From Tubiluchus corallicola (lineage: Eukaryota > Priapulida > Priapulimorpha > Priapulimorphida > Tubiluchidae): a DNA stretch of 64,000 bases. Position 1 is the stretch's first letter; every line of letters starts with the position of its first letter. Shown here piece by piece: positions 59,201 through 63,465 of the stretch. A program made the position numbers and the translations under genes. Under the pieces are notes generated by a model. The model was not told the DNA's origin and searched no databases. It saw only the letters and a list, made by a program, of their open reading frames with translations. The stretch lies in assembly GCA_030141605.1 (NCBI GenBank), contig JAQGDQ010002373.1, positions 467,921 to 531,920 of the forward strand, in the 5' to 3' direction.

Positions 59201-62200
59201 GCCAGAATGTTAGATAAGCTAAGCTAGGCCCAGTGTTGCTTAACTTTGATCGACGATCACTAAGCACACAATATAACCTTACAGAAAATGCAATAATATT
59301 TACTCAGTTAGATCACTGTAACAACAAGATGATACAGACCATCTGTGATGTTTTCTAATAAACAAACTTTCTTAAATAAACAATCTTGTTTTAACAGGCG
59401 AAGAGCAAACAACATCAGCTTTATGTAAGTAAAAATCCCACACGCCTTAACAGCCTGCAAGCATGGCACCACACAATAACATAGCAAAAAAACAAAGCTA
59501 ACGAAGCTTGCAAAGGCAAAAGCATAAAAGAGTAAGCAGTATAACATAACTGTAGATTGATCAATGGTTGTCACATTATCATTTTTTAAGAACTGATAGT
59601 TATGAAATTGTCAAAATTATACCAATTAATTTTTTCTAGAAAATATACAAACATAAACATTCGACAATTTGGTAACCTAGTATGGTCTTGAAATTAGACA
59701 AAGACCTTTAAAAACGGTTTTTCAAGTTTCAGCAACAAAAAAAAATTGCCAAAAATACACGAAAACGTAATTGCCGATGTCCAACATTAAACAAATGCAT
59801 GGAATGATAAAGATTATTATCGGAGCAGGACGACAAAGCCATCGAAAAGAAGCTCAGGCAAATGAAGGACAATATTTTGGCTTGGAATGTTCAAAGAGCT
59901 GAAACAACCTGCTGAAAATTTCTTAAGTAAGGAAGAGTGCAGAAAACCTATACTTGAGTTCTAGTGCTAGTATGTGAAGATGCTTGTAATACTATAAAAT
60001 TTTGTGATATGCAGGTCTCTGACAACTAAATGGCCGATTAAGAACTTATGGCAAAATTATGGTAAACACATTTAGGGCTATTACACGTACTGTATTGTTT
60101 CTTTCTACATCTATTTACTTCAGAAGTCTACCCCAGAGATTTCTCTGGCCAAAGGAGATTAAACAGTGAGTATCTAAACAGTATTTGATATTAAGGTAAC
60201 GTGTAAGTGCAACAGTACAATGAGTGCATTGGGGTTAATTTCTGGGTTAGTTTAGGTCTTTCCACAAATCATGTAAAATTTAAAAGCCTATATAAGCCCA
60301 AAAGACATTGAGCTTTTTTAAAGCATTATTATGATTACATAAAGAATTCATAGTTATTATTAAACAGAAGAAACTTGTAAATTAAATAACTTACCTTTTT
60401 CTGGCAAATTTCTAATGAGTGCATTTCCGTAAGGATCGCCATGTTTTCCGTCTTTAGAGAATGTACAGAAAGCGTCTTTGGTTGCCAATGTTTGTTTAAC
60501 AATTTTTAGTGATCTCGTGCCTGTACTCATAATGTTATTGGTTTCTCTCGCACACCAAAAAATGGCGGTTTTTCAAATTTAATACCGCTAACAGCGAAGT
60601 GATAACGAATCAGAAGAAACAAGTTTTACAGTTAGTTTAAAATAAAATAAATTGAATGTTCTTAATGAGAATAGGATTTTAAGTTGTAAAAGCTTATATT
60701 ATAGTTAGAGTTTAGTCTGACTTTAAATAAGTCTGCAGGCCTAAAATGGTGGTACATATAAAGTAGTCAGAGCTAATTTAGTAAGCTATTGCTAGGATTC
60801 TTATAAGAAAAAAACGAATAACTAAAAGCATAGCCATAACAAAACAAAAACACAAGTTACGCAACTAAAATCAAGCGCACTTACGCCTTGCCAAGTATCC
60901 TTGGAAAACATTGGCCAAGTCTTGTAATTCAAATCATGCTTGAATGTCTCTTTTCTGTGCTGGCCAAACCCGTACAAATTTTCTGATGTCAAACGAGTAG
61001 CAATTTGAATGAACTGATCCTCAAATATTAAGCCTCCTATTGTTGTATCCCATCTATGATAAAAGTGATAAAAGAGTGCACATGGCATCAGCGATGAAAA
61101 CTTCAAAAACATCCGAAGACCCAAGACATTAACTCCTAACAGTTCCATTTGCAAATACTTCAGCTCTGCATTAGATCATAGAAATTAAACCAGCCCAATT
61201 AAATTCAGAAATTACTCACTTTGTAAAGTGCGAAGAAGCCAGAAGCATCATTAAATTCAAGGTTAGATGCACAGAAAAATTCCCAAGTTTTGTTGCTTTT
61301 AATAAAAAAATCCGAAGACCACTATTAAATTCAAATTTTTGGAATAGTGTGTATTTTTTCTACCATATGAGGTATATCACGTAATTTTTATTAGAATTTT
61401 CGGTTTTCAAATTTGAGCTATGACTTTCCAAACTTCCATCTTTTAATTCAAATACTAAATAGACCTACATCAAAAATATTACATGTATGTGTACTGAATA
61501 GAACAGCAAGCTACCATGATTTACAAATGGGAATGAGATTGAAAACATTCAGGAATACAGATATATAATCAAAACAACCACATTAGAACTGGTAAAAAAA
61601 CACAGAACGCATTAAAAATTGAAAAGTAAATGCTTAAAATATTATAATTGTAGGGAATTTCAAGGAAACGAAATAAAACTAGTTTGTGATAATTACATTG
61701 GTATTGGCATTTTCATGGAAAGAGAAGATGGCTTAATGGTGCCCAAAATATTGAAAGCCCACCTCACTATACTGCTTACTCTTATACATCCATGGTGGAA
61801 TAGGCAAACAATAATTTCTGTTTTGTGTACAAAAAACCAATAACACTTGTCCAGCTGTGTATTGACGTTACCAAACATTAATAACTTATGCTTGTATTGC
61901 ATTTGTACAAAAAACTAAAAAGGCAAAGATCAAATTATGACTGTTTTGTTAATAAATAATGTGCAAAATAACATTTAGACGCATTTATTCAGGTACAAAC
62001 GACTTAAATATCATACGTAACAAGTTTTTTAATTTTCCACTATTTTGCCTGCTTAGTGTTTAAAATTCTTACTTTTCAATTTGACCATTCAGTTGCATCA
62101 GTTTCAAAAAAAGCAGTTAGGCAAAAATATGTGACAGTTAAAATTGTAATAATCCACATTATTCATTCATAGATCAAAGCAAAAGATTATTAGAATGCCA

Positions 62201-63465: not shown

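What the first reader, a model, noticed from the sequence alone, without database searches (positions are those of the whole stretch)
60885..62965. Candidate mutually exclusive exons swapping an active-site loop in a digestive alpha-glucosidase
Seen: two homologous exons, 62791-62965 and 60885-61053, share entry phase 2 and exit phase 0. They agree at about 41 of 52 residues but diverge sharply in the last ten: K-N-P-S-R-V-H-E versus K-D-T-W-Q-G. Including both or skipping both breaks the frame, so exactly one must be used. No other module exon is duplicated beside them. Known (from memory of the human N-terminal maltase-glucoamylase structures): the matching loop, R-D-T-T-P-N, places Asp and Thr side chains in the sugar-binding site. 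Inference: splicing choice could retune substrate or inhibitor preference of module 1. I know of no such switch described in this enzyme class.
Basis: partly seen in the sequence, partly recalled or inferred. Interest (0 to 1): 0.82.

Follow-up and report, generated by a model that had tools for sequence, protein, structure and literature searches.

The report
Splice-swapped active-site loop, gut-type glucosidase
One animal-type starch-digesting enzyme gene carries two old, preserved versions of one exon that cannot be used together, and choosing between them would swap a nearly unchangeable active-site acid for an amide; no RNA evidence was available to show the choice is made.

Summary
Window 62791-62965 (a) and 60885-61053 (b), minus strand, are homologous exons (40 of 52 residues) with the same phases; including both or neither meets a stop. 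They sit in module 1 of a two-module GH31 maltase-glucoamylase/sucrase-isomaltase-like gene. The equivalent exon is single in the seven other GH31 modules examined, and no other module-1 exon is doubled within 79 kb.

Both copies look functional: dN 0.12-0.16 against dS 1.3-4.7 by three methods; simulations reject a neutrally drifting copy (0 of 2000). Nearly all protein change lies on a's branch, yet a stayed constrained (omega roughly 0.1-0.3).

The key difference: exon b keeps the +1-subsite Asp (human Asp203); exon a has Asn. Asp stands there in 80 of 80 bacterial relatives aligned; among host modules Asn recurs only in a paralogue with other active-site losses.

Best reading: mutually exclusive exons, enforced at least by reading frame, switching module 1 between a canonical and an altered, probably weakened, active site. 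There are no RNA data. Exon a's acceptor is weak, so a recently dying exon is the main rival.

The parts
62791..62965 (-). Exon a (alternative, derived): WDTSIGG...[10 protein letters not shown]; 175 nt; entry phase 2, exit phase 0; carries Asn at the position of human NtMGAM Asp203
   Evidence: its acceptor outscores only 1 of 27 constitutive acceptors of the gene, its donor 14 of 27
60885..61053 (-). Exon b (alternative, canonical): WDTTIGG...FSKDTWQG; 169 nt, the length modelled in four of the seven other modules (C419 twice, C751 twice); keeps Asp203
   Evidence: its acceptor outscores 16 of 27 constitutive acceptors, its donor 2 of 27
63305..63465 (-). Shared upstream exon of module 1 ([14 protein letters not shown]...STNTV)
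   Evidence: the model starts it 22 nt further upstream (63487), which I judged to be intron
58530..58626 (-). Shared downstream exon of module 1 ([13 protein letters not shown]...), 97 nt; 97 nt also in module 2, C419 x2, C751 x2 and C1060, 100 nt in C1776
40969..58038 (-). Remaining module 1 exons: nucleophile motif WIDMNEP, acid/base motif [11 protein letters not shown] and FARNHN present, so an active-looking GH31 module
   Evidence: splice-aware model; Pfam PF01055 and PF13802; motif roles recalled
9123..38605 (-). Module 2 of the same gene: trefoil plus a second GH31 module; its equivalent exon 34389-34563 is single
   Evidence: (PF00088, PF01055); the model's last exons (below about 18000) and the start of its first exon are uncertain
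59525..59543 (.). Arm of a 19-nt, 95% complementary pair that flanks exon b (possible loop-out element; borderline)
   Evidence: 11 of 200 shuffles reach the score
61768..61786 (.). Partner arm of the pair that flanks exon b

Best explanation
Exons a and b are mutually exclusive alternative exons produced by an old tandem duplication of one exon in module 1 of a two-module GH31 alpha-glucosidase. Each carries 56-58 residues of the N-terminal beta-sandwich, ending in the loop that reaches into the active site. Both-in and both-out transcripts hit early stops, so nonsense-mediated decay (or mere lack of product) leaves only single-use mRNAs; a regulated choice between a weak-acceptor/good-donor exon (a) and a good-acceptor/weaker-donor exon (b) would set the ratio. 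Exon b yields the canonical enzyme with the +1-subsite Asp. Exon a yields a module with Asn there and a loop longer by two residues, most likely with weakened or altered binding at +1 to +3 (lower hydrolysis, changed linkage or inhibitor preference, or more transglycosylation). Shown: sequence, frames, long-term selection, conservation. Inferred: splicing, decay, regulation, catalytic effect.
For: Homology and frames. dN/dS about 0.03-0.12 (NG86 0.16/2.8, LWL85 0.16/1.3, ML 0.12/4.7), 18 of 52 codons synonymously different, no significant intron match. Simulations: a fully neutral copy rejected (0 of 2000 under each of three settings of the other copy); neutral for 30% or more of the time since duplication P about 0.01 or less. 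a and b form one clade, 96/98 support. The equivalent exon is single in seven other modules, with the same phases, and no other exon of module 1 is doubled. Of 13 columns with one residue in at least 7 of 8 outgroup sequences, a and b both depart at the same five, and a alone departs only at the Asp203 column. Asp in 80 of 80 bacterial relatives aligned, out of 155 found. Asp203 contacts the +1 sugar in human NtMGAM (PMC10456934).
Against: No RNA-seq or transcript data. No related animal genome could be examined for the pair; no allele data because the five copies are identical. Exon a's acceptor is weak: 44.6% of the AGs on that strand of the 79 kb score as well. The a-b intron is 1737 nt and all borders are GT-AG, so no crowding or U2/U12 mechanism is seen; only the frame enforces exclusivity. 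The a/b differences are not significantly biased to columns that vary in relatives (P 0.085). Loop length alone is no sign of change: module 2's exon is as long as a (175 nt). The complementary pair flanking b is only borderline (11 of 200 shuffles).
Confidence: 0.7

Rival explanations
1. Exon a is a recently dying copy: it was constrained for long, then lost a good acceptor and the key Asp, and is now skipped or nearly so; only b matters.
For: Nearly all protein change is on a's branch (0.27 against 0); weak acceptor; loss of an Asp present in 80 of 80 bacterial relatives aligned; simulations allow death in the last 10% of the time since duplication (P 0.51) and barely the last 20% (P 0.075).
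Against: No stop or frameshift over the aligned exon and GT/AG kept; a good donor; omega of a about 0.1-0.3 overall; among the strongly conserved columns only the active-site Asp is changed in a alone, which looks targeted rather than random.
Confidence: 0.2
2. Alternative first exons or promoters, or cassette use, rather than strict mutual exclusion: one exon belongs to transcripts that start between a and b or carry a different upstream part.
For: The a-b intron is 1737 nt and could hold a start; nothing tested here excludes one.
Against: No second copy of the upstream exon in the 79 kb; both exons begin inside a codon at phase 2 and fit the same upstream exon.
Confidence: 0.05
3. Relic of a lost tandem module: divergence arose while a and b sat in two whole modules, and a deletion left one stray exon.
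For: The gene family is modular and duplicated; divergence under constraint would be explained.
Against: No trace of any other exon of a third module in the 79 kb; the stray exon would have to land in the right intron, in the right orientation and with matching phases.
Confidence: 0.04
4. Assembly artefact.
For: The locus is repeated on five contigs, so the assembly is redundant.
Against: All five contigs carry the same a-b order and spacing and are identical over the aligned stretch; a and b differ at 26% of 156 aligned bases, far beyond sequencing error.
Confidence: 0.01

Closest known systems
Maltase-glucoamylase / sucrase-isomaltase (GH31, two tandem modules)
   Same: Two GH31 modules in tandem, a trefoil before module 2, catalytic motifs present; best solved matches are MGAM and SI
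   Different: About half identical to human modules over the exon (24 and 27 of 52 residues to ntMGAM); one exon of module 1 is doubled; no trefoil or membrane anchor found before module 1
Mouse ctMGAM splice forms N2 and N20 (PMC7658089, one passage)
   Same: Splicing varies a catalytic module of the same enzyme class
   Different: C-terminal module; the passage does not say which exons differ. I saw no statement that they are duplicated, mutually exclusive exons
Mutually exclusive exons of enzymes in general (for example pyruvate kinase PKM1/PKM2; recalled)
   Same: Tandem homologous exons, one used per transcript, enzyme properties changed
   Different: Here the swap replaces a nearly invariant active-site residue of a glycosidase
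Alternatively spliced Anopheles dirus glutathione S-transferase (named in PMC1950890, one passage)
   Same: Alternative splicing alters the active site and substrate specificity of an enzyme
   Different: Different enzyme; its exon arrangement was not looked up

Membership tests
Mutually exclusive exons | Adjacent homologous exons with equal phases | tested here: met
   40 of 52 residues, entry phase 2, exit phase 0 for both
Mutually exclusive exons | Both-in and both-out break the frame | tested here: met
Mutually exclusive exons | Both copies have usable splice sites | tested here: inconclusive
   b has a good acceptor and a weaker donor (outscores 2 of 27); a has a good donor but an acceptor that outscores only 1 of 27 constitutive acceptors
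Mutually exclusive exons | Both copies under purifying selection | tested here: met
   a very recent loss in a is not excluded
Mutually exclusive exons | Transcripts contain exactly one of the two | not testable with these tools
   no RNA data
MGAM/SI-type GH31 alpha-glucosidase | GH31 barrel and N-terminal domain with nucleophile motif W-I-D-M-N-E | tested here: met
   (PF13802 in module 2 is below its cut-off)
MGAM/SI-type GH31 alpha-glucosidase | Two tandem modules with a trefoil before each | tested here: inconclusive
   two modules and a trefoil before module 2; none found before module 1 by tblastn and pattern in C2048:15000-59999 or by splice-aware model in C2048:35000-54099
MGAM/SI-type GH31 alpha-glucosidase | N-terminal membrane anchor | not tested
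   the 5' end of the gene was not found; no search for an anchor was run
MGAM/SI-type GH31 alpha-glucosidase | Digestive (gut) expression | not testable with these tools
   no expression data; 'digestive' rests on family resemblance

The most novel reading that the evidence does not exclude
Splicing flips the catalytic character of one module: exon b gives an ordinary hydrolase, while exon a removes the otherwise invariant +1-subsite acid and remodels the loop, giving a module with little hydrolysis or with mainly transfer or binding activity, so that one gene supplies both an active enzyme and a tuned or decoy form. The only other host module seen with Asn at that site also lacks the Asp327 equivalent and the His600 equivalent, which fits a non-hydrolytic role for the Asn form.
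Probability: 0.3. Interest if true: 0.78.

Novelty: new variant of a known kind. Interest (0 to 1): 0.6.

Why it matters
If true, an animal-type starch enzyme can re-set a nearly invariant sugar-contacting residue by splicing rather than by gene duplication, which would link diet, tissue or stage to enzyme behaviour. It would also give a natural pair of loops, differing at 12 of 52 aligned residues plus a short unlike tail, for testing what the +1-subsite Asp of GH31 does; docking work on glucosidase inhibitors treats that residue as important (PMC10456934, passages).

Tried and rejected
Regulatory RNA pairing: three intron pairs were tested against 200 shuffles each; only the pair flanking b is suggestive (11 of 200); the best pairings flanking a (53 of 200) and both exons (66 of 200) are at chance. 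The 14-base core occurs twice in the window, which 9 of 100 shuffles also reach with up to 2 mismatches; its genome copy number could not be checked.

UGCAUG splicing-regulator motif: 1, 0 and 0 copies in the three introns, nothing notable.

Allele comparison across the five contigs: identical over the aligned stretch, no information.

Naming the organism: no COX1 match in the assembly and the rRNA search did not complete, so the species is unknown. No eukaryotic genome collection was on hand to look for the pair in relatives.

Trefoil before module 1: not found by tblastn or a plus-strand pattern in C2048:15000-59999, or by a splice-aware model in C2048:35000-54099; a weak tblastn hit (E about 1) near C2048:52487-52558 may be a neighbouring exon and was not pursued.

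The exon length of C419 depends on the query used for the model (169 nt with module 1, 187 nt with module 2); I use 169.

The peptide at 60396-60530 looked like a nested gene or third exon; it is an interspersed repeat (49 matches, a lower bound).

Full report
WHAT IS THERE. The window lies in an unnamed 343.5 Mb assembly (window = C45:15582-79581, minus strand). On the window's minus strand runs a gene with two GH31 modules. Module 1 spans window 63465 to 40969 and continues upstream of the window; module 2 starts with a trefoil at about 38605 and runs to about 9100, its last exons being uncertain. Pfam finds PF13802 and PF01055 in module 1 and PF00088 and PF01055 in module 2 (PF13802 in module 2 is below its cut-off). 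The best solved matches are maltase-glucoamylase and sucrase-isomaltase. 'Digestive' is inferred from family only.

THE PAIR. Exon a (62791-62965) and exon b (60885-61053) share AG/GT borders, entry phase 2 and exit phase 0, and 40 of 52 residues. Either one joins the upstream exon (63305-63465) and the downstream exon (58530-58626) in frame. With both, a stop comes at the 11th codon after the a-b junction; with neither, at the 4th codon, counting the one that spans the junction. In the seven other GH31 modules examined (module 2, C419 twice, C751 twice, C1060, C1776) the equivalent exon has the same phases and measures 166-175 nt in the models (C419 reads 187 nt with one of two queries). tblastn with eight exon versions finds it once in each of the six 10-kb paralogue loci, and only a, b and the module-2 exon in the 79 kb of this gene. 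The genome-wide search with exon b gave 21 matches and no other adjacent pair (counts are lower bounds). Within 79 kb no other module-1 exon is doubled. The five contigs that carry the locus are identical over the aligned stretch (9,419 bases for C45, 10,000 for the other four), so this is redundancy, not allelic support.

AGE AND SELECTION. Over the 52 aligned codons the differences by codon position are 10, 8 and 22, and 18 codons differ synonymously. dN and dS are 0.16 and 2.8 (NG86), 0.16 and 1.3 (LWL85), 0.12 and 4.7 (ML); YN00 gave no value; dS is near or beyond saturation. Flanking introns show no significant match. Simulations matched to the third-position difference ask whether one copy could have drifted. 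A neutral copy gives on average 31-32 residue changes and a stop in 91-93% of runs; 12 or fewer changes were seen in 0 of 2000 runs in each of three settings. With b nearly frozen, as the tree suggests, a fits omega 0.15-0.3 best, 0.1 is borderline (12 or more changes in 5% of runs) and 0.4 is unlikely (P 0.014). If a was constrained and then died, death during the last 10% of the time is easily allowed (P 0.51), 20% is marginal (P 0.075), 30% is poor (P 0.011) and 50% was not seen in 1500 runs. In a tree of 11 exon sequences a and b form a clade (96/98), with a branch of 0.27 for a and about 0 for b. These are short sequences and simple simulations.

THE RESIDUE. In the phmmer alignment exon b's Asp falls on residue 203 of human NtMGAM (chain index of 2qly, my count), and exon a's Asn on the same place. 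In human NtMGAM with acarbose, Asp203 contacts the +1 ring and Thr205 the +3 sugar (PMC10456934, passages only). To see how fixed the Asp is, I scanned bacterial and archaeal genomes with an alignment of six host modules; 155 relatives were found, the best 80 kept (bacteria by their titles), and all 80 aligned: Asp in 80 of 80. The scan patterns did not include this loop. In the host, of seven module versions aligned, five have Asp and two have Asn: exon a and the paralogue C1776. C1776 also has Gly at the Asp327 column, where 80 of 80 relatives have Asp; it reads FSRNNN where module 1 reads FARNHN and module 2 YSRNHN, and DIDRNEP where both read WIDMNEP (residue roles recalled). So the only other Asn form seen sits in a module that looks catalytically degraded. 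Module 1 itself keeps its catalytic motifs outside this exon. Among 13 columns with one residue in at least 7 of 8 outgroup sequences, a and b both depart at the same five (at one of them with different residues), and a alone departs only at the Asp203 column. Against this: the bias of a/b differences to variable columns is weak (P 0.085), and module 2's exon is as long as a, so loop length alone is not unusual.

SPLICING. Scored with matrices from 27 constitutive exons of the same gene, a has a weak acceptor (-1.6; outscores 1 of 27) and a good donor (14 of 27), b a good acceptor (16 of 27) and a weaker donor (2 of 27). Such complementary strengths suit regulated exons but also suit a failing acceptor in a. 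All borders are GT-AG and the a-b intron is 1737 nt, so neither crowding nor U2/U12 mismatch is seen to enforce exclusivity; the frame does. A 19-nt complementary pair flanks b (59525-59543 with 61768-61786), reached by 11 of 200 shuffles: a lead only.

VERDICT. Real, ancient, long-constrained exon pair; mutual exclusion by frame is shown at sequence level, use is inferred. The most likely working is a splice choice between a canonical +1-subsite loop (b) and a derived one (a). The chief rival is a recent death of exon a. Splice forms of the class are known (mouse ctMGAM N2 and N20, PMC7658089, one passage), but nine paper searches on the subject (open-licence papers only) listed nothing on mutually exclusive exons in GH31; titles and starts of abstracts were read, with passages of PMC7658089 and PMC1950890, not whole papers.

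Noticed in passing
window 60396-60530 (minus strand), intron between exon b and the next exon: Open frame [24 protein letters not shown]... belongs to an interspersed repeat: 49 matches in the host assembly (a lower bound, including 5 copies of this locus). No Pfam match at E 0.1.
   Followed up: partly
window about 58898-59187: Run of diverged tandem copies of a roughly 32-nt unit (TTACTGTTGTAGTTTCTTAACATTGTTTAAAG-like) in the intron after exon b; self-matches at 32-nt offsets.
   Followed up: no
window about 59215-59260: Stretch that resembles part of 5S ribosomal RNA (recalled resemblance, not searched), perhaps a 5S-derived SINE.
   Followed up: no
L026/L028 (host contig C1776:360625-370561): GH31 paralogue with altered active site: Asn for Asp203, Gly for Asp327, Asn for His600, DIDRNEP for WIDMNEP; perhaps a non-hydrolytic GH31 protein. 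The model reads mostly as one open GH31 module, with doubtful stretches and a doubtful end.
   Followed up: partly
window exons a and b (YGFGQH): Both exons have Gln where the eight outgroup sequences have Glu (YGxGE); a change in module 1 probably older than the a/b split.
   Followed up: no
host contigs C45, C2048, C2100, C2197, C2212: The locus is on five contigs that are identical over the stretch compared; the assembly is redundant here.
   Followed up: yes
L022 and L023 (host contig C419): Two inverted copies of another GH31 module about 18 kb apart, 97.6% and 94.8% identical in the two longest aligned pieces; the exon is single in each.
   Followed up: partly
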